From Paludibacteraceae bacterium (GTDB lineage: Bacteria > Bacteroidota > Bacteroidia > Bacteroidales > Paludibacteraceae), in contig JAILLP010000024.1 in the NCBI GenBank assembly GCA_024693065.1, positions 62,001 to 126,000 of the forward strand: DNA of 64,000 bases. The letters run 5' to 3'. Positions within the stretch are counted from its first letter, which is position 1. The number at the start of each line of letters is the position of its first letter. A model generated the notes under the pieces. That model was not told the DNA's origin. It saw only the letters and a program-made list of their open reading frames with translations, and did not search any database. Below, in pieces: positions 14,385 to 37,683 of the stretch. The translations under genes and the position numbers were made by a program.

Positions 14385-14591
14385 TTCCAAAAAAATATAG
14401 GGAAGCCAGCGGCTCCCGATTACAACAAATAGTACGGACTCCAAGGCGGGCTCCATCAGGAGAGGAAGCCATGCCGCACAAAAACTTGCGCGAAAATACA
14501 TAAAAATCTCCGATTATGGTCAGGAATGCGCAAGAAAACAAAAGAGGCGACCCGAAAAACGAGCCGCCTCCTGTAAGTTTGTTTAAAACAA

Positions 14592-14864
14592 TCAATTGAG
14601 AGCCTTGTTCAACTCTGCGCCTGCCTTAAACTTAGCAACTTTCTTAGCTGCGATCTTAATCTTCTTACCTGTTGCAGGGTTAACACCCTCACGTGCAGGA
14701 TTCTCCTTTACTGAGAAAGAGCCAAAACCAATAAGAGCCACCTTATCGTTGCCCTTCAATGCAGCAGTTACTACCTCTGAGTAAGCGTCAACAGCCTTCT
14801 TGCTGTCCGCAATAGTCAAACCGCTCTTCTCTGCGATTGCCTTAATGAATTCTGTCTTATTCAT
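14592..14864 (-). CDS. HU-family DNA-binding protein
   Basis: MNKTEFIKAIAEKSGLTIADSKKAVDAY...GFGSFSVKENPAREGVNPATGKKIKI. Confidence 0.95.
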   Translation of the reverse strand: MNKTEFIKAIAEKSGLTIADSKKAVDAYSEVVTAALKGNDKVALIGFGSFSVKENPAREGVNPATGKKIKIAAKKVAKFKAGAELNKALN

Positions 14865-29468: not shown

Positions 29469-30848
29469 ATGTTAAAGCATTTATGGACAATCATCGCATT
29501 GGTCGTGGCAAGCGCCAATGTGATGGCACAAGACGAAGAAGTTGAAGTAGAAGGCGATGCGTCAGAAAGCGAAGTCATCGCCCAAGAAGAGGAAATCGAG
29601 GAACAGGAAGAGCAAGCAGACTTGGCCTTCATCGACTCGGTGGAGTCCGCAAACGCGAAAGGGGACACCATCAAAATATATTCGGATCTCCCTGTCGGCT
29701 TCGACAACAAAATGGATAGTCTACTGAACGAGTACTACAAATCCGTCATCGTAACGCCTAAAAGACGCAAATGCGTATCGGACAGCATCGGAGTGGGCTG
29801 CAGCGACGAAGTCTACATCGCCAGACTGCAGAAGATTCCAGCCATCATGGAACTCGCCTACAACCCTATCGTAAAGAAACACATTGAATTATACGTGCTG
29901 AAACGCCGCAAACAGGTGGAGAACATGTTGGGCATCGGCGAATACTACTTCCCCATCTTCGAACAGGAGTTGGAGGCAGCCAGACTTCCACTCGAACTGA
30001 AATACCTGCCAGTCATCGAGTCGGCTCTCAACCCATTGGCATTCTCCCGCGCAGGTGCATCCGGTCTTTGGCAGTTCATGTACGGGACAGGCAAACTGTA
30101 CGGATTGGAGGGCAACAGCCTGGTGGACGAAAGACGTGACCCTATCAAGGCCACTCATGCGGCAGTTCGTTTCTTAGGCGACCTCTACAAAATCTACGGA
30201 GACTGGTCGCTCGTGATCGCCGCCTATAACTGCGGTCCGGGCAACGTGAACAAGGCCATCAAACGGGCGAACGGAAAGAAAGACTACTGGGCCATCTACC
30301 CTTACCTGCCATTGGAGACCAGAGGCTACGTGCCGGCCTTCATCGCCGCCACCTACGCCATGACCTACTACAAGGAACATAACATCTGCCCTGCGAAGAT
30401 GCAGATGCCAGTGTTGTGCGACACGATCAGGCTGAAGGAGAGGGTCCACTTGGGACAGATAGCGGAGGTGATGAAAATAGACATCAAGCTCCTTCGTAGC
30501 CTCAACCCGCAATATAGAAAGGATATCATCCCTGGCAACGGAGAGGTGTACACATTGTGTCTCCCGCAGAAAAGCATAAGTAGCTTCATCGACCAGAAGG
30601 ACTCCATCATCGCCTACAAAGCCGACTCGTTCGCCTTGAACAGAGCGGTGGTGCTCCCTGCAAAGGCAGACCCGTACTACAGGGGCATGAGGGGCGGAGC
30701 CATCGGCAAGGGAGTGTACATCGTGAAGAAGGGTGACTCCCTCTCCTCCATCGCAAAACGCAGAAAGGTTTCCGTCGCTAAGCTGAAGCAGTGGAACAAT
30801 CTGAAGTCCGACAGAATACGCGCAGGCCAGCGGTTGAGGATAAGATGA
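29469..30848 (+). CDS. mltD: Membrane-bound lytic murein transglycosylase with LysM domain
   Basis: VIESALNPLAFSRAGASGLWQFM transglycosylase motif; C-terminal YIVKKGDSLSSIAKRRKVSVAKLKQWNNL LysM. Confidence 0.9.
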   Translation: MLKHLWTIIALVVASANVMAQDEEVEVEGDASESEVIAQEEEIEEQEEQADLAFIDSVESANAKGDTIKIYSDLPVGFDNKMDSLLNEYYKSVIVTPKRRKCVSDSIGVGCSDEVYIARLQKIPAIMELAYNPIVKKHIELYVLKRRKQVENMLGIGEYYFPIFEQELEAARLPLELKYLPVIESALNPLAFSRAGASGLWQFMYGTGKLYGLEGNSLVDERRDPIKATHAAVRFLGDLYKIYGDWSLVIAAYNCGPGNVNKAIKRANGKKDYWAIYPYLPLETRGYVPAFIAATYAMTYYKEHNICPAKMQMPVLCDTIRLKERVHLGQIAEVMKIDIKLLRSLNPQYRKDIIPGNGEVYTLCLPQKSISSFIDQKDSIIAYKADSFALNRAVVLPAKADPYYRGMRGGAIGKGVYIVKKGDSLSSIAKRRKVSVAKLKQWNNLKSDRIRAGQRLRIR

Positions 30849-30983: not shown

Positions 30984-31015
30984 CTTGCATTTCAAAAATT
31001 AAACGATTACATTTG
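30984..31015 (+). promoter_or_regulatory. trp operon promoter (TTGC -33-like / TACATTTG -7)
   Basis: TACATTTG (31008-31015) matches TAnnTTTG; 20-nt spacing to TTGC at 30984; lies just upstream of the leader ORF. Confidence 0.6.
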
Positions 31016-31034
31016 CGGTGTAAAATTTGCAGAT

Positions 31035-31112
31035 ATGGTATACAAAGTAAACACAAACATAGCTAACAGCCTTTATTGGTGGCGCCCGTCTCTCTTTCAA
31101 TCCCGGAGGTGA
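31035..31112 (+). CDS. trpL: Putative trp leader peptide MVYKVNTNIANSLYWWRPSLFQSRR
   Basis: 25-codon ORF with tandem Trp codons (31077-31082), between promoter and terminator upstream of trpE. Confidence 0.75.
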   Translation: MVYKVNTNIANSLYWWRPSLFQSRR

Positions 31113-31145
31113 GCGAGTGCTTGTGTGTATATCTAAACAATATAG

Positions 31146-31182
31146 AAGCCCGTTGGAAATCTCCAACGGGCTTTCTTTTTTT
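31146..31182 (+). terminator. trp attenuator terminator
   Basis: Perfect 12-bp stem AAGCCCGTTGGA(AATC)TCCAACGGGCTT followed by TCTTTTTTT; 34 nt after the leader stop and 45 nt before trpE. Confidence 0.85.
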
Positions 31183-31226
31183 AGCATTCCAACAAGAAAA
31201 AACAAATAAAAAATAATACAGTAAAA

Positions 31227-32633
31227 ATGAAGAGATTTAGTTATTCCATTCAAAGCAAGAAGATACTTGCAGACATGTACACTCCAGTCAGTGTATACAT
31301 GCGCCTACGCGACATGTACAGTTGCAGTGCGCTCATGGAGAGTTCCGACTACCACAGCATGGAGAACGCCCGTTCCTACATAGGCGTCTCCCCTATCGCC
31401 TCCATCGCCATCGGGCATGGGAAGTCAGAGATGACCTTCCCGGACGGTTCGGTCGTGAAGGGGGAGATCTCGGAGAAGTGCCACGTGGACAAGGTGATCC
31501 GCGAGTTCATGTCGTGCTTCGACATCCAAGGAGGCGAAGACCTACACTGCGGCCTCTTCGGCTACACCTCCTTCAATGCGGTGCGCTACTTCGAGAACAT
31601 CGCCGTGAAGGATGAGACCCAGACCAAGAACGACGCACCGGACATCCTGTACGTCTTGTTCAAGAACATCGTCGAGTTTGACCACTACAACAGCTCACTC
31701 AAAATCATCTCCCTCTGCGCCGACGGAGAAGCGTCTGACTTGGCGCTCATCGAACGTCAAATGAACCGCACCAACATCCGGGCGTATGACTTCCATCCTG
31801 TGGGTGAGACCACCAGCACGCTGACTGACGAGGAGCACAAGGCAAACATCCGCAAGGGTATCGAGCACTGCCTGCGAGGTGACGTCTTTCAAATCGTTCT
31901 TTCAAGACGATTCATCCAACGTTTCGAAGGTGACGATTTCAAGCTCTACCGTGCTTTGCGCAGCATCAACCCTTCCCCTTACTTGTTCTACTTCGATATG
32001 GGAGGCTTCCGCATCTTCGGATCATCGCCTGAGACCCACTGCCGCATCATCGGCAGCAAGCGCAGGGCTTACATCGATCCGATAGCGGGCACGACCAAGC
32101 GCACGGGCAATGCGGAGATCGACGCACAAAACGCTCAATACCTGAGAAATGACCCGAAAGAGAACGCCGAACACGTGATGCTGGTCGACTTGGCCCGCAA
32201 CGACCTGAGCCGCAACTGCCACGGTGTGAAGGTGGATTTCTACAAGGATATGCAATACTACAGCCACGTCATCCATTTGGTGAGCCGTGTGAGCGGAGAG
32301 CTCGACGCAGACGCGGACCCGATCCGCACCTTTATAGACACCTTCCCTGCCGGCACGCTCTCCGGTGCGCCTAAGGTACGCGCCATGCAGCTCATCAGCG
32401 AATACGAGCCTCATAACCGTGGCGCCTACGGAGGTTGCGTCGGCATCATCGGCTTCGACGGTTCCCTCAACCAAGCAATCACTATCCGCACATTCGTCAG
32501 CCGTAACAATGAACTCTGGTTCCAGGCGGGCGGCGGTATCGTGGCGAAGAGCAACGAGGAATATGAGCTTCAGGAGGTGAACAACAAACTGGGCGCCCTC
32601 AAGAAGGCTATTGAGATGGCAGAAACAATGTAA
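31227..32633 (+). CDS. trpE: Anthranilate synthase component I
   Basis: SPETHCRIIGSKRRAYIDPIAGTTKRTGNAEIDAQNA, FPAGTLSGAPKVRAMQLI. Confidence 0.95.
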   Translation: MKRFSYSIQSKKILADMYTPVSVYMRLRDMYSCSALMESSDYHSMENARSYIGVSPIASIAIGHGKSEMTFPDGSVVKGEISEKCHVDKVIREFMSCFDIQGGEDLHCGLFGYTSFNAVRYFENIAVKDETQTKNDAPDILYVLFKNIVEFDHYNSSLKIISLCADGEASDLALIERQMNRTNIRAYDFHPVGETTSTLTDEEHKANIRKGIEHCLRGDVFQIVLSRRFIQRFEGDDFKLYRALRSINPSPYLFYFDMGGFRIFGSSPETHCRIIGSKRRAYIDPIAGTTKRTGNAEIDAQNAQYLRNDPKENAEHVMLVDLARNDLSRNCHGVKVDFYKDMQYYSHVIHLVSRVSGELDADADPIRTFIDTFPAGTLSGAPKVRAMQLISEYEPHNRGAYGGCVGIIGFDGSLNQAITIRTFVSRNNELWFQAGGGIVAKSNEEYELQEVNNKLGALKKAIEMAETM

Positions 32634-32654
32634 AATACTTAAAAAGAAAAGATT

Positions 32655-33218
32655 ATGAAAATCGTCATAATAGATAACTACGACTCATTCACCTACAATT
32701 TGTACCATTTGCTGCGTGAAGTAGGTGCCGACACCAGCGTCGTGCGCAACGACAAGTTCGCTTTGCCCGACCTTGAAATATATGATAAAATCGTGCTTTC
32801 GCCTGGTCCTGGAATCCCTTCCGAGGCGGGTCTGCTGCTCGACACGATCGATCGGTACGCAGGCAAGAAACCTATCCTTGGCGTGTGCCTCGGACACCAG
32901 GCCATCGGTCAATACTTCGGAGCGGAACTCACCAACCTGACGGACGTGTTCCATGGTGTGCAGACGGATGTGCGCCGCACCAACGACGACTATCTGTTCA
33001 ACGGATTGCCGGAGAGATTCCCTGTAGGAAGATACCACTCATGGGTAGTGGACGCCAAGACGATGCCTAACACGCTGGAGGTGACCGCCACGAGCGACGA
33101 GGGCTTGGTGATGGCACTGAAACACAAGGAGTATGACATCCACGGCATACAATTCCACCCAGAGTCGGTACTCACCCCCGACGGAAAAAAAATCATCGAG
33201 AATTTTATAAACAAATAA
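32655..33218 (+). CDS. trpG: Anthranilate synthase component II (glutamine amidotransferase)
   Basis: IDNYDSFTYNLYHLL, GVCLGHQAIGQ, GIQFHPESVLT. Confidence 0.95.
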   Translation: MKIVIIDNYDSFTYNLYHLLREVGADTSVVRNDKFALPDLEIYDKIVLSPGPGIPSEAGLLLDTIDRYAGKKPILGVCLGHQAIGQYFGAELTNLTDVFHGVQTDVRRTNDDYLFNGLPERFPVGRYHSWVVDAKTMPNTLEVTATSDEGLVMALKHKEYDIHGIQFHPESVLTPDGKKIIENFINK

Positions 33219-33230
33219 ACCCATACGATC

Positions 33231-34232
33231 ATGAAACAGATATTATCACGTCTGGTGCTCCACGAGGAGCTGACATCCGAAGAAACAGAACAGATACTCA
33301 TAGGCATTACGCAAGGAAAATATAGCAATGAGCAGATCTCCGCACTCATCATGGCGCTCCAAATGAGGGGAATCAGCGTGGACGAACTACTTGGGTTCCG
33401 GAAGGGAATCCTCAGCACAGGTGTACATGTGGATCTATCCCCCTATAAACCCATCGATATCGTAGGAACGGGCGGTGACGGAAAAAACACGTTCAACATC
33501 TCCACCTGCGCCTGCTTCGTTGTCGCTGGTGCCGGCTACAAGGTGGCTAAGCACGGTAACTACGCCTCGACCTCCGTCAGTGGAGCGAGCAACGTGATCG
33601 AAAACCACGACGTGAAGTTCACCAACGACAACGACAAGCTCAAGCGAAGCATCGAGGAATGCGGCTTCGTCTATCTGCATGCGCAACTCTTCGCCACCGC
33701 CATGAAGCATGTGGGTGGCATCCGCAAAGCCTTGCAGATTCCAACCTTCTTCAACCTGCTTGGCCCATTGGTTAACCCATGCCAGCCAAGCTACCAGTTG
33801 CTGGGTGTAGCCAACCTCGACCAAATGCGTCTCTACAGCAACGCATACCAGAAAATCGGCATCGGCTATGGCATCGTGAACAGCCTCGACGGCTATGATG
33901 AGATATCGTTGACGGGCGACTTCAAGGTGGTGACCAACAGCATGGAGAAGATTTACAAGCCAATGGACGTTAAGATGCCTATCTCCAACGTGGCAGACCT
34001 CAGCGGATCGAGCCGTCAAACCATCGAAGACGCGAAGAAAGTATTCGATGACGTTTTGGAGGGCAATGCGACAGAGAGCCAGATGAACGTGGTGATCATC
34101 AATGCCGCCTTCGCCATCAAGGTGATGGAGCCTGAGAAGGAAATCGACGAGTGCATCGCGATCGCCACGGAATCGCTCAAGTCAGGCAAGGCATTGTCCG
34201 TCTTGAAGAAATACATTGCCTTAAATTCTTGA
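33231..34232 (+). CDS. trpD: Anthranilate phosphoribosyltransferase
   Basis: DIVGTGGDGKNTFNIST, KHGNYASTSVSGASNVIE, NLLGPLVNPCQPSYQLLGV. Confidence 0.95.
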   Translation: MKQILSRLVLHEELTSEETEQILIGITQGKYSNEQISALIMALQMRGISVDELLGFRKGILSTGVHVDLSPYKPIDIVGTGGDGKNTFNISTCACFVVAGAGYKVAKHGNYASTSVSGASNVIENHDVKFTNDNDKLKRSIEECGFVYLHAQLFATAMKHVGGIRKALQIPTFFNLLGPLVNPCQPSYQLLGVANLDQMRLYSNAYQKIGIGYGIVNSLDGYDEISLTGDFKVVTNSMEKIYKPMDVKMPISNVADLSGSSRQTIEDAKKVFDDVLEGNATESQMNVVIINAAFAIKVMEPEKEIDECIAIATESLKSGKALSVLKKYIALNS

Positions 34233-34262
34233 TTATAAATATTTTATTTAACGATTCAAGAC

Positions 34263-35063
34263 ATGAACAATTATCTGGAAAGAATCATGGCGACGAAAGG
34301 CGAATGTGTGGCCGAGGCGAAGCGGAAGGTCTCCCTTGAGGAGGTGAAGGCTATGTGCCGCGACGTACGCCCCTGCTTCTCCCTCTCGGAGAACCTGCGG
34401 AAACGCAACGGTATCATCGCCGAGTTCAAGCGCCAGTCACCTTCGAAAGGGGTGATCCACGGAGGCATAACGCCCAAGCAGGTGGTCGGATGCTACGAGC
34501 AGGCAGGCGTGAGCGCCGTTTCCGTGCTCACGGACACCCAGTTCTTCGGAGGCTCCATCGCGGACCTGCGGGAGGCGGCGTCGGTGCTCAACATCCCTAT
34601 CCTCCGCAAAGAGTTCATCAACGACCCATACCAAGTCTACGAAGCCCGTGCCAACGGAGCCTCCGCCATATTGCTCATCGCAGCGGTGCTCGAACGTGCG
34701 CAGGCACAGGATTTGGCCGCCTTGGCCAATGAGCTCGGTCTAGAGGTGTTGTTGGAGCTCCATGACGAAGAAGAGTTGGCATATATCACACCAGAAACCA
34801 ATGTGGTAGGAATCAATAACCGAAATCTTCGTACCTTTGAGGTCGATTTGAACCACTCCATCTCCATGGCCTCCTCCCTGCCCAAAGAGACGCCCAAGGT
34901 GTCTGAGAGCGGCATACGGAGCATAGACAACATGGTGACGCTTCGGAACGGAGGGTTCGACGGATTCCTGATCGGTGAAAACTTCATGGCGGCGGAGAAC
35001 CCTGGGCAAGCCTGCATAACGTTCTGCAAAGAGTATACGGACCGTTTATCACAAGGGAAATGA
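34263..35063 (+). CDS. trpC: Indole-3-glycerol-phosphate synthase
   Basis: IIAEFKRQSPSKGVI, VSVLTDTQFFGGS, VVGINNRNLRTFEVD. Confidence 0.95.
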   Translation: MNNYLERIMATKGECVAEAKRKVSLEEVKAMCRDVRPCFSLSENLRKRNGIIAEFKRQSPSKGVIHGGITPKQVVGCYEQAGVSAVSVLTDTQFFGGSIADLREAASVLNIPILRKEFINDPYQVYEARANGASAILLIAAVLERAQAQDLAALANELGLEVLLELHDEEELAYITPETNVVGINNRNLRTFEVDLNHSISMASSLPKETPKVSESGIRSIDNMVTLRNGGFDGFLIGENFMAAENPGQACITFCKEYTDRLSQGK

Positions 35064-35689
35064 GCGACGCACCGTTGAAAATAAAGGTTTGTGGGATGGC
35101 CGATGCAGAGAACCTGGCCCAGTTGGCCCGCTTGAAGCCGGACTACGTAGGGTTCATCTTCTACCCGAAGTCTAGCCGATACGTGGTGGAACGCTTGTCC
35201 GCCGAGGCGCTTAACGTGTTGCCTAGAGACACGAAAAGAGTGGGCGTCTTCGTCTCCGAGAAGCCAGAAACGCTCCTCGCCCTCGCGAAGGAGTATGGGC
35301 TCGACTACGTGCAGCTGCACGGTGACGAGAGCGTCGAATACTGCCAGAGCATCAGGCAACAGGGATTGAAGGTGATCAAGGTCTTCCGTGTCTCCACGGC
35401 GGACGATCTGGCGACGGTTGCGAAGTATGCCCAATGTGCCGACCTCTTCTTGTTCGACACCAAGACACCGCTGTATGGCGGGTGCGGGCAGGAGTTTGAC
35501 TGGACCATCCTTGAGCAAGCCCAAGTCCCTCTGCCGTGGCTGATTTCAGGAGGCATATCTGCCGATAACATCCAGCGGGCCTGCCAAACAGGCGCATTCG
35601 CCGTAGACCTGAACAGCAGGTTCGAGACCGCCCCAGGCGTGAAGGACATCCCATTGCTTGAAAGATGTTTTGAATTAATACGTAAATAA
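35060..35689 (+). CDS. trpF: Phosphoribosylanthranilate isomerase
   Basis: KVCGMADAENLAQL, DYVGFIFYPKSSRYV, DYVQLHGDES; 4-nt overlap with trpC. Confidence 0.93.
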   Translation: MSDAPLKIKVCGMADAENLAQLARLKPDYVGFIFYPKSSRYVVERLSAEALNVLPRDTKRVGVFVSEKPETLLALAKEYGLDYVQLHGDESVEYCQSIRQQGLKVIKVFRVSTADDLATVAKYAQCADLFLFDTKTPLYGGCGQEFDWTILEQAQVPLPWLISGGISADNIQRACQTGAFAVDLNSRFETAPGVKDIPLLERCFELIRK

Positions 35690-35720
35690 CAGATTTTTAA
35701 ATTATTAAACAGATAAATAT

Positions 35721-36905
35721 ATGTCGAAATACGATGTCAGCAGCGAAGGATTTTACGGACGTTTCGGAGGCGCATACATCCCTGAAATGCTCTATCCTAA
35801 CGTTGAGAATCTGAAAAAGATTTATCTTGAGATATTGAACTCCGAGAAGTTCAAATCGCAGTACAAGCAGCTCATGAAGGACTATGTGGGAAGGCCTACC
35901 CCACTCTTCTACGCGGAGAAGCTCTCGTCGATCTACTCGACCCATGTGTTCCTCAAACGTGAAGATTTGGCGCACACGGGAGCGCATAAGATCAACAATG
36001 CGATCGGTCAGGTGTTGATCGCCAAGGAGATGGGCAAGACGCGTATCATCGCGGAGACCGGAGCCGGACAGCACGGAGTGGCCACCGCCACCGCATGCGC
36101 ACTCTTAGGCATGGAGTGCCACGTCTACATGGGCGAGGTGGACATTGAGCGTCAGGCGCCTAACGTAGCGCGCATGCGCATGCTCGGAGCCGAGGTGGTG
36201 CCAGCCAAGAGCGGTAACAAGACACTGAAGGACGCCACGAACGAAGCGTTGCGCGACTGGATTTCCAACCCAGAGGACACCTTCTACGTGATAGGCTCCA
36301 CTGTAGGTCCATTCCCTTACCCAGACTTGGTCGCAAGGCTACAATCCATCATCAGCGAAGAGATGCGTTGGCAGCTTAAAGAGCAGACAGGCAAGGAGTT
36401 GCCAGACTATGTGATCGCCTGCATCGGTGGCGGTAGCAACGCCGCAGGTTCGTTCTACCACTTCGTCAACGACGAGCAGGTGAAGCTGGTGGCTGTAGAG
36501 GCCGCAGGTCACGGACTAGACTCGGGAGACACCGCCGCCTCGATCGCAAGGGGATCGGAGGGCATCATTCATGGCGCACGCACCATGCTCATGCAGACGG
36601 ACGACGGGCAGATCATCGAGCCATATTCCATCTCGGCAGGACTCGACTACCCGGGCATCGGTCCTATGCACTCCTTCTTGGCTGAGGTCGGAAGGGAGAC
36701 CGTACTCTCCGCAACTGACGACGAAGCATTGCAAGCCGCACTGCAGCTCACCAGGGAAGAGGGCATCATACCCGCACTCGAGAGCTCGCACGCCTTGGCG
36801 GCACTGCCTAAGCTGAAGTTCCGCAGCGACGAGAACGTGGTCGTGACCATCTCAGGCCGAGGCGACAAAGACATGGCAACGTATATTAACCATTTAAAAC
36901 TATAA
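35721..36905 (+). CDS. trpB: Tryptophan synthase beta chain
   Basis: GRPTPLFYAEKLS, KREDLAHTGAHKINNAIGQ, ETGAGQHGVATAT. Confidence 0.96.
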   Translation: MSKYDVSSEGFYGRFGGAYIPEMLYPNVENLKKIYLEILNSEKFKSQYKQLMKDYVGRPTPLFYAEKLSSIYSTHVFLKREDLAHTGAHKINNAIGQVLIAKEMGKTRIIAETGAGQHGVATATACALLGMECHVYMGEVDIERQAPNVARMRMLGAEVVPAKSGNKTLKDATNEALRDWISNPEDTFYVIGSTVGPFPYPDLVARLQSIISEEMRWQLKEQTGKELPDYVIACIGGGSNAAGSFYHFVNDEQVKLVAVEAAGHGLDSGDTAASIARGSEGIIHGARTMLMQTDDGQIIEPYSISAGLDYPGIGPMHSFLAEVGRETVLSATDDEALQAALQLTREEGIIPALESSHALAALPKLKFRSDENVVVTISGRGDKDMATYINHLKL

Positions 36906-36912
36906 GAGACCC

Positions 36913-37683
36913 ATGAAAAATAGGTTAGACAATATATTAGAGAGCAAGAAAGACTTGCTATCGATCTATGTGATGGCTGGGTATCCACAGCGCAATGACC
37001 TCATGACCATCTTGCGCGGGCTGGAGAAGGCGGGAGTCGATTTCGTGGAGGTCGGCATGCCCTTCAGCGACCCGTTGGCAGACGGTCCCGTGATTCAGGA
37101 TGCAGGCAACGCGGCGCTCGACAACGGCATGAGCATCAAGGAGTTGTTCGCCCAGATAAAAGAGATGCGCAAGGAGATCACCATGCCCGTATTGCTGATG
37201 GGCTACATCAACCCAGTGATGCACTACGGCATAGAAAAGTTCGCCGCCGATGCGCACAGTGTAGGCGTGGACGGCCTCATCATCCCCGACCTACCGTTCG
37301 ACACCTACGTGAAGAAGTACAAGGCGCTCTTCGACGCCAACGAGCTGCACTTCATACCGCTCATCGCGCCGCAGACACCGGACGAGCGCATCAAGCACAT
37401 CGACGCACAGGCGGAGGGCTTCATCTACACGGTCGCATCCGCAGGAATCACCGGTAACATCAAGACGTCGGAAGACTACCGCACCCAATACTTCGAGCGC
37501 ATCCGCAACCTGCACCTGCGCAACAAGACCGTCATCGGGTTCGGCATCAAGGACCATGCCAGCTACACCCACGCTTGCAGCCACGCTGACGGAGCCATCA
37601 TCGGAACCGCCTTCATCAAGCACCTGAAAGAGAACGGAGCGAGGGAGGAAGCGGTCGGGAAGTTCGTGAAATCGATACGCTAA
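36913..37683 (+). CDS. trpA: Tryptophan synthase alpha chain
   Basis: VDFVEVGMPFSDPLADGPVIQ, VDGLIIPDLPFD, IYTVASAGITG. Confidence 0.95.
   Translation: MKNRLDNILESKKDLLSIYVMAGYPQRNDLMTILRGLEKAGVDFVEVGMPFSDPLADGPVIQDAGNAALDNGMSIKELFAQIKEMRKEITMPVLLMGYINPVMHYGIEKFAADAHSVGVDGLIIPDLPFDTYVKKYKALFDANELHFIPLIAPQTPDERIKHIDAQAEGFIYTVASAGITGNIKTSEDYRTQYFERIRNLHLRNKTVIGFGIKDHASYTHACSHADGAIIGTAFIKHLKENGAREEAVGKFVKSIR

What the first reader, a model, noticed from the sequence alone, without database searches (positions are those of the whole stretch)
30984..31226. trp operon leader with tandem Trp codons and a perfect attenuator hairpin
Seen directly: a TACATTTG promoter, then a 25-codon ORF MVYKVNTNIANSLYWWRPSLFQSRR* (31035-31112) with two adjacent TGG codons. 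It is followed by a perfect 12-bp stem plus U-tract (31146-31182), then trpE at 31227. A candidate antiterminator is UUUCAA(UCC)CGG at 31095-31106 pairing with CCGUUGGAAA at 31150-31159. It would be free when a ribosome stalls at WW and covered when the ribosome reaches the stop codon, which is the correct logic for Trp attenuation. The pairing is bulged and much weaker than the terminator, so the switch mechanism is inferred. Ribosome-mediated trp attenuation is best characterised in Proteobacteria; a Bacteroidales example that uses no SD-driven leader translation would be notable.
Basis: partly seen in the sequence, partly recalled or inferred. Interest (0 to 1): 0.78.

Follow-up and report, generated by a model that had tools for sequence, protein, structure and literature searches.

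The report
Bacteroidales tryptophan-operon ribosome attenuator
The DNA in front of this gut bacterium's tryptophan genes carries a switch in which a ribosome that stalls on two tandem tryptophan codons would let the genes be read through a stop signal; the same switch stands in front of most related bacteria's tryptophan genes, so it is a well-supported new member of a known kind of regulator rather than a new one.

Summary
A 25-codon ORF with TGG-TGG (31035-31112), a perfect 12-bp terminator with U-tract (31145-31182), a conserved TTG/TACATTTG promoter and trpE lie as described. In seven same-genus genomes the background diverges, but promoter, ATG, reading frame, WW codons, nearly everything after them and the terminator stay. 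Tandem-Trp leader ORFs stand upstream of the first trp gene in 138 fetched Bacteroidales loci, against about 0.3% expected by chance. A covariance model built without the window's genus finds the window leader at E = 8e-7.

Comparative folding and covariation instead support (i) a protector hairpin 31090-31098/31105-31113 and (ii) an antiterminator in which GGAGGU over the leader stop codon (31105-31110) pairs with AUCUCC in the terminator loop and 3' arm (31159-31164), and GCUU (31119-31122) pairs with AAGC at the terminator base (-16.3 kcal/mol).

This is classical ribosome-mediated trp attenuation. Bacteroidetes trp leaders have been in Rfam since 2010 (RF01692); that model misses the window, but mine matches both. 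New member of a known kind. Side finding: two genomes carry two such attenuators in series. No expression data exist here.

The parts
30985..31015 (+). promoter-like pair: TTG (30985-30987) and TACATTTG (31008-31015), Bacteroidetes type
   Evidence: CTTG and TA-ATTTG boxes stay in 7 same-genus leaders whose surroundings diverge; TAnnTTTG lies within 70 nt upstream of the leader ATG in 85 of 130 distinct leaders. Assignment as a Bacteroidetes promoter rests on general knowledge; no transcript data
31035..31112 (+). leader peptide ORF MVYKVNTNIANSLYWWRPSLFQSRR*
   Evidence: ATG, frame and the 14-codon distance to WW kept in 7 genus leaders although the N-terminal residues change
31077..31082 (+). 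tandem Trp codons TGG TGG (sensor)
   Evidence: tandem or near-tandem Trp codons in all 138 detected leaders (the search required them); 2 to 4 Trp codons each, 109 of 129 distinct ones have three
31090..31113 (+). protector (1:2) hairpin, CUC-U-CUUUC aauccc GGAGG-U-GAG
   Evidence: in the window MFE fold; homologous hairpin in 37 aligned leaders: 92% of cells paired, 7 of 8 pairs with two-sided changes, 0/500 shuffles as high
31105..31122 (+). antiterminator 5' strand (region 2): GGAGGU + CGAG + GCUU
   Evidence: constrained folding, -16.3 kcal/mol with its partner; homologous core: 87% of cells paired, covariation score 0.242 against 0.187 in shuffles, 0/500 as high
31146..31164 (+). antiterminator 3' strand (region 3): AAGC at 31146-31149, middle 31151-31155, AUCUCC at 31159-31164
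31145..31182 (+). intrinsic terminator (attenuator), 12 perfect bp plus one G-U, then U-tract
   Evidence: terminator pairs 98.5% kept in 53 Prevotella-group leaders with 7 two-sided changes
31227..32633 (+). trpE, first gene of the regulated operon trpE-G-D-C-F-B-A (31227-37683)
   Evidence: homologues by tblastn

Best explanation
This is a ribosome-mediated transcription attenuator of the trp operon. RNA polymerase starts just upstream of the leader ORF, and a ribosome starts at its ATG without a Shine-Dalgarno sequence. With enough charged tRNA-Trp the ribosome runs through WW to the stop codon (31110-31112) and covers region 2 (31105-31122), so the terminator 31145-31182 forms and transcription ends. 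With too little charged tRNA-Trp it stalls at 31077-31082 and masks the left arm of the protector hairpin. Region 2 is then free and pairs with the base and loop of the nascent terminator (GCUU:AAGC, GGAGGU:AUCUCC), and polymerase reads on into trpE. If nothing is translated, the protector hairpin holds region 2 and the terminator forms. Shown here: parts, conservation, covariation, mutually exclusive folds. Inferred: dependence on Trp, leader translation, termination efficiency.
For: Conservation of the ORF, WW and terminator. Compensatory changes in the protector and in the antiterminator core, including one column that pairs with both its protector and its antiterminator partner (53/53 in each). 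A covariance model made without the genus hits the window at 31074-31178, E = 8.2e-7. Step-wise folding gives the expected three states: free RNA has protector plus terminator; ribosome at WW has the antiterminator from polymerase position 31158 to about 31176-31178; ribosome at the stop has the terminator only. Located directly before trpE, or before trpB where that gene comes first. No T-box or riboswitch family reaches Rfam's gathering score.
Against: No expression or ribosome data. In the full-length RNA the terminator (-22) is still more stable than the antiterminator (about -16 to -18), so the switch must be kinetic. For the window sequence alone the antiterminator is only modestly better than shuffles (3.1% of shuffles as good), and the swap control does not separate it from terminators of relatives. 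Two relatives with trpB first show no tandem-Trp leader in the roughly 300-500 nt searched (L116, L124).
Confidence: 0.9

Rival explanations
1. Same attenuation principle, but with the antiterminator drawn by the first reader (UUUCAAUCCCGG 31095-31106 with CCGUUGGAAA 31150-31159).
For: In two relatives with the same FQSRR leader end (L041, L044) the aligned segment CAAUCUCGG or AAUCUCGG does pair with CCGAGAUU(G) in the terminator 5' arm and loop, so the register may have moved during evolution.
Against: In the window it is worth -4.9 kcal/mol against -16.3 for the alternative; L043, L045, L049, L062 and the Prevotella group use the downstream register.
Confidence: 0.07
2. The nascent leader peptide (conserved ending FQSRR) arrests the ribosome, as TnaC does, rather than Trp codons being read slowly.
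For: FQSRR is kept between the window and L041 through three synonymous changes.
Against: The same bases form the protector and antiterminator, which explains the conservation; relatives L045, L049 and L062 have other or shorter endings yet keep WWW and the RNA structure.
Confidence: 0.03
3. An ordinary intergenic terminator of the upstream gene plus a chance short ORF, with no regulation.
For: The upstream gene (29469-30848) is on the same strand and ends about 300 nt before the hairpin.
Against: A conserved promoter and ORF lie between that gene and the hairpin; a WW ORF by chance has a frequency of 0.3%; conservation and covariation across the order.
Confidence: 0.02

Closest known systems
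Bacteroid-trp RNA, Rfam RF01692 ('Bacteroidete tryptophan peptide leader RNA'; Weinberg et al. 2010, PMC2864571)
   Same: trp leader in Bacteroidetes with tandem Trp codons, a hairpin beginning around the Trp codons and a terminator start; before trpB in the six hits fetched. Four of the six RF01692 loci are also found by the model R1 that finds the window.
   Different: The window is not matched by RF01692 even at E up to 10, nor is any of the 16 genus genomes. The window has two Trp codons instead of the usual three, and trpE comes first.
E. coli-type trp attenuator, Rfam RF00513 Trp_leader
   Same: WW in a short leader ORF, protector, antiterminator and terminator segments in the same order, upstream of trpE. 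The overlapping match scores 30 bits.
   Different: Below the family's gathering score (30 against 41); other leader peptide; no Shine-Dalgarno seen; the antiterminator reaches through the terminator loop into its 3' arm.
trpB ncRNA motif, Rfam RF04312
   Same: Same layout of hairpin then terminator; weak overlap (28.9 bits).
   Different: Far below its gathering score of 59.

Membership tests
ribosome-mediated amino-acid operon attenuator (class) | short leader ORF with clustered codons for the operon's amino acid | tested here: met
ribosome-mediated amino-acid operon attenuator (class) | intrinsic terminator between leader ORF and first structural gene | tested here: met
ribosome-mediated amino-acid operon attenuator (class) | mutually exclusive antiterminator and protector hairpin placed so that stall and stop positions of the ribosome decide between them | tested here: met
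   (by computation only)
ribosome-mediated amino-acid operon attenuator (class) | readthrough depends on charged tRNA and leader translation | not testable with these tools
   needs an experiment
Rfam RF01692 Bacteroid-trp | score at or above the gathering cut-off of 49 bits | tested here: not met
   no hit at gathering, none at E up to 10, none in 16 genus genomes
Rfam RF01692 Bacteroid-trp | homology through intermediates | tested here: inconclusive
   model R1 hits both the window and four of six RF01692 loci; suggestive, but no tree or direct alignment was made
Rfam RF00513 Trp_leader | score at or above the gathering cut-off of 41 bits | tested here: not met
   30 bits
T-box / tryptophan riboswitch-like leaders | match to a T-box or riboswitch family | tested here: not met
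   no Rfam family at gathering in the window

The most novel reading that the evidence does not exclude
Most Bacteroidales trp operons, far beyond what Rfam's model reports, are controlled by one family of ribosome-mediated attenuators that work without Shine-Dalgarno initiation and close to the 5' end, in some species as two attenuators in series. That would mean a ribosome follows RNA polymerase closely at the start of transcripts in this phylum.
Probability: 0.6. Interest if true: 0.45.

Novelty: new member of a known kind. Interest (0 to 1): 0.33.

Why it matters
It gives a complete, testable three-state model for trp attenuation in uncultured rumen Bacteroidales. It shows that RF01692 captures only part of these leaders (6 of 61 relatives searched). 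It also makes transcription-translation coupling in a phylum that initiates without Shine-Dalgarno sequences open to a simple reporter test. I found no paper in the open library describing the mechanism in Bacteroidetes beyond the 2010 motif listing; subscription papers are not covered.

Tried and rejected
Rfam at gathering: nothing in the window. Rfam at relaxed E-value: RF00513, RF04312, RF00506 and other families overlap the leader below their cut-offs, on layout rather than membership. Swap control (region 2 with other species' terminators): uninformative because relatives share the same blocks. Whole-genome scan with R1 in the genus: the hits in G000 are weak and the ones examined show only a terminator, and the G015 hit is a chance TGGTGGTGG inside a gene (phosphoglycerate-kinase-like, by reading) followed by a terminator; this scan's first-look filter also lost the window's own leader, which the direct search finds. 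Several second-locus R1 hits in other genomes (L209-L216) are not trp leaders as far as examined: no tandem-Trp ORF, mostly at gene ends. Loci first scored as lacking a leader mostly have truncated contigs or further genes upstream, such as trpA or trpB.

Full report
What is in the sequence. Reading the window directly confirms each element: TTG at 30985-30987 and TACATTTG at 31008-31015; a 25-codon ORF at 31035-31112 with TGG TGG at 31077-31082; a terminator at 31145-31174 followed by CTTTTTTT; and trpE at 31227. The ORF list gives the run trpE-G-D-C-F-B-A up to 37683 (gene names from sequence inspection, trpE and trpB backed by homologues). The leader folds better than 200 of 200 shuffles (z = -3.3). 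No Shine-Dalgarno is visible before the leader ATG. If transcription starts a few bases after TACATTTG, the 5' leader before the ATG is only about 12-16 nt (inference).

Whose genome. The nearest named records are rumen Bacteroidales or Paludibacteraceae metagenome-assembled genomes. Their trpE is 98-100% identical, yet several of their leader regions have diverged, which makes a good footprint.

Conservation. In seven same-genus leaders the stretch before the promoter and the first 14 codons change freely, but without frame shifts. Constant are CTTG, TA-ATTTG, the ATG, the distance to WW, the sequence from TATTGGTGG to GAGTGCTT with one variable base, and nearly all of the terminator. N-terminal residues vary (MVYKVNTNIANSLY, MINKIEINTISNLY, MTNKQIIIITNNAY), so the ORF start and frame are kept, not the peptide. 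Beyond the genus, tandem-Trp leader ORFs were found upstream of trpE or of trpB in 138 fetched loci, 130 of them distinct. 126 of 130 have TGGTGG in such an ORF within 300 nt, against 0.25% in resampled sequence; the 130 were chosen for having a leader, so the fair denominator is the 158 loci, of which 20 had none found. One of the 130, L104, looks like the end of an upstream gene and was left out of later counts. Most loci scored as lacking a leader are truncated or have further genes upstream; L116 and L124 appear really to lack one in the part searched.

Structure. I folded each leader with the part covered by a ribosome at the last Trp codon removed and with the terminator's 3' arm incomplete. 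A similar antiterminator plan came out in most of the 20 leaders printed: a block at or just after the leader stop codon pairs with the terminator loop and the top of its 3' arm (window GGAGGU:AUCUCC; L049 and L062 CCGGAGU:ACUCCGG; Prevotella types UCGUGAG-like with UUCUUGCGA or CUCACGA; GUCGCGA:UCGCGAC), and a second block pairs with the base of the terminator 5' arm (window GCUU:AAGC; others GCC:GGC). Across 129 leaders 75% are at or beyond the 5% level of their own shuffles (60 shuffles each).

Covariation. On an alignment of 37 leaders from outside the genus (A1), the protector hairpin has 92% of cells paired and 7 of 8 pairs with changes on both sides, with no shuffle or slid version as good. 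The antiterminator core has 87% paired, against 27-43% for slid versions, and a covariation score that no shuffle reaches. The number of its pairs with two-sided changes (3) is not above shuffles (193/500), so its support rests on pairing and the covariation score. On a separate alignment of 53 Prevotella-group leaders, one column pairs with its protector partner in 53 of 53 (A-U 26, G-C 27) and with its antiterminator partner in 53 of 53 (U-G 14, C-G 27, U-A 12), as expected for a base used in both states. The structures were derived from members of the set, which favours them on cells paired; the shuffles do not remove relatedness.

Independent test. A covariance model (R1) built from A1, which contains no member of the window's genus, finds the window at 31074-31178 with 36.2 bits, E = 8.2e-7 in 64 kb (E-values of this tool are rough); the next hits are terminators (E = 0.03 and above). 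Over a sample of the order, 78 of 199 genomes have a hit at E <= 0.001, including four of the six loci that RF01692 finds. Genomes that lack the trp operon are in this denominator.

Mechanism. Folding at successive polymerase positions (10 nt hidden in polymerase, ribosome footprint 12 nt past the A-site codon; both assumed) gives three states. Free RNA: protector, then terminator. Ribosome at W15 or W16: antiterminator pairs from about 31158 to 31176-31178, with the terminator winning only at 31178-31182. Ribosome at the stop: terminator only. The antiterminator is thermodynamically weaker than the terminator, so it must act by forming first. Shown: anatomy, conservation, covariation, exclusivity. 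Inferred: Trp dependence, translation of the leader, efficiency of termination.

Comparison. The class (ribosome-mediated attenuation, as in E. coli trp) is known. Bacteroid-trp, RF01692, was listed in 2010 as a probable cis-regulatory RNA of Bacteroidetes, and Rfam calls it a tryptophan peptide leader. The window falls outside both RF01692 and RF00513 by score, but fits the class on every feature that computation can test. I therefore call it a new member of a known kind, outside the reach of the current model.

Extra. Two genomes of other families in the order carry two complete attenuators in series, each with its own WW leader and terminator: one before trpE (L207) and one before trpB (L208). 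I know of no described case of tandem ribosome-mediated trp attenuators, but did not search for one specifically.

Noticed in passing
L207 (G042:C131:1500-5000, minus strand), ORFs MNTNRLNNYWWWQFTYSFYREEGKLS and MNNSNLHIWWWHNSGIKP before trpE: Two complete trp attenuators in series, each with its own tandem-Trp leader ORF and terminator, before one trpE.
   Followed up: partly
L208 (G435:C36:60000-63500, plus strand, about 1526-1800): A second case, in another family, of two trp attenuators in series: MKIENITYTYWWRILDNLK with terminator, then MITILNIWRWWLIPVKKS with terminator, before trpB.
   Followed up: partly
genus of the window: L008 and relatives against L014, L016-L018: Within one genus some genomes have trpE first with a WWR leader and others have trpB first with WWWQ or WRWQ leaders; four genomes (G003, G006, G012, G013) show no strong trpE hit.
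   Followed up: partly
window 14487-14621: Weak R1 hits on both strands over a GC-rich hairpin; looks like an ordinary terminator, not a Trp leader.
   Followed up: no
L041 and L044: Leaders with the same FQSRR ending as the window but a shifted antiterminator register (CAAUCUCGG:CCGAGAUUG), suggesting that the pairing partner can slide in evolution.
   Followed up: partly
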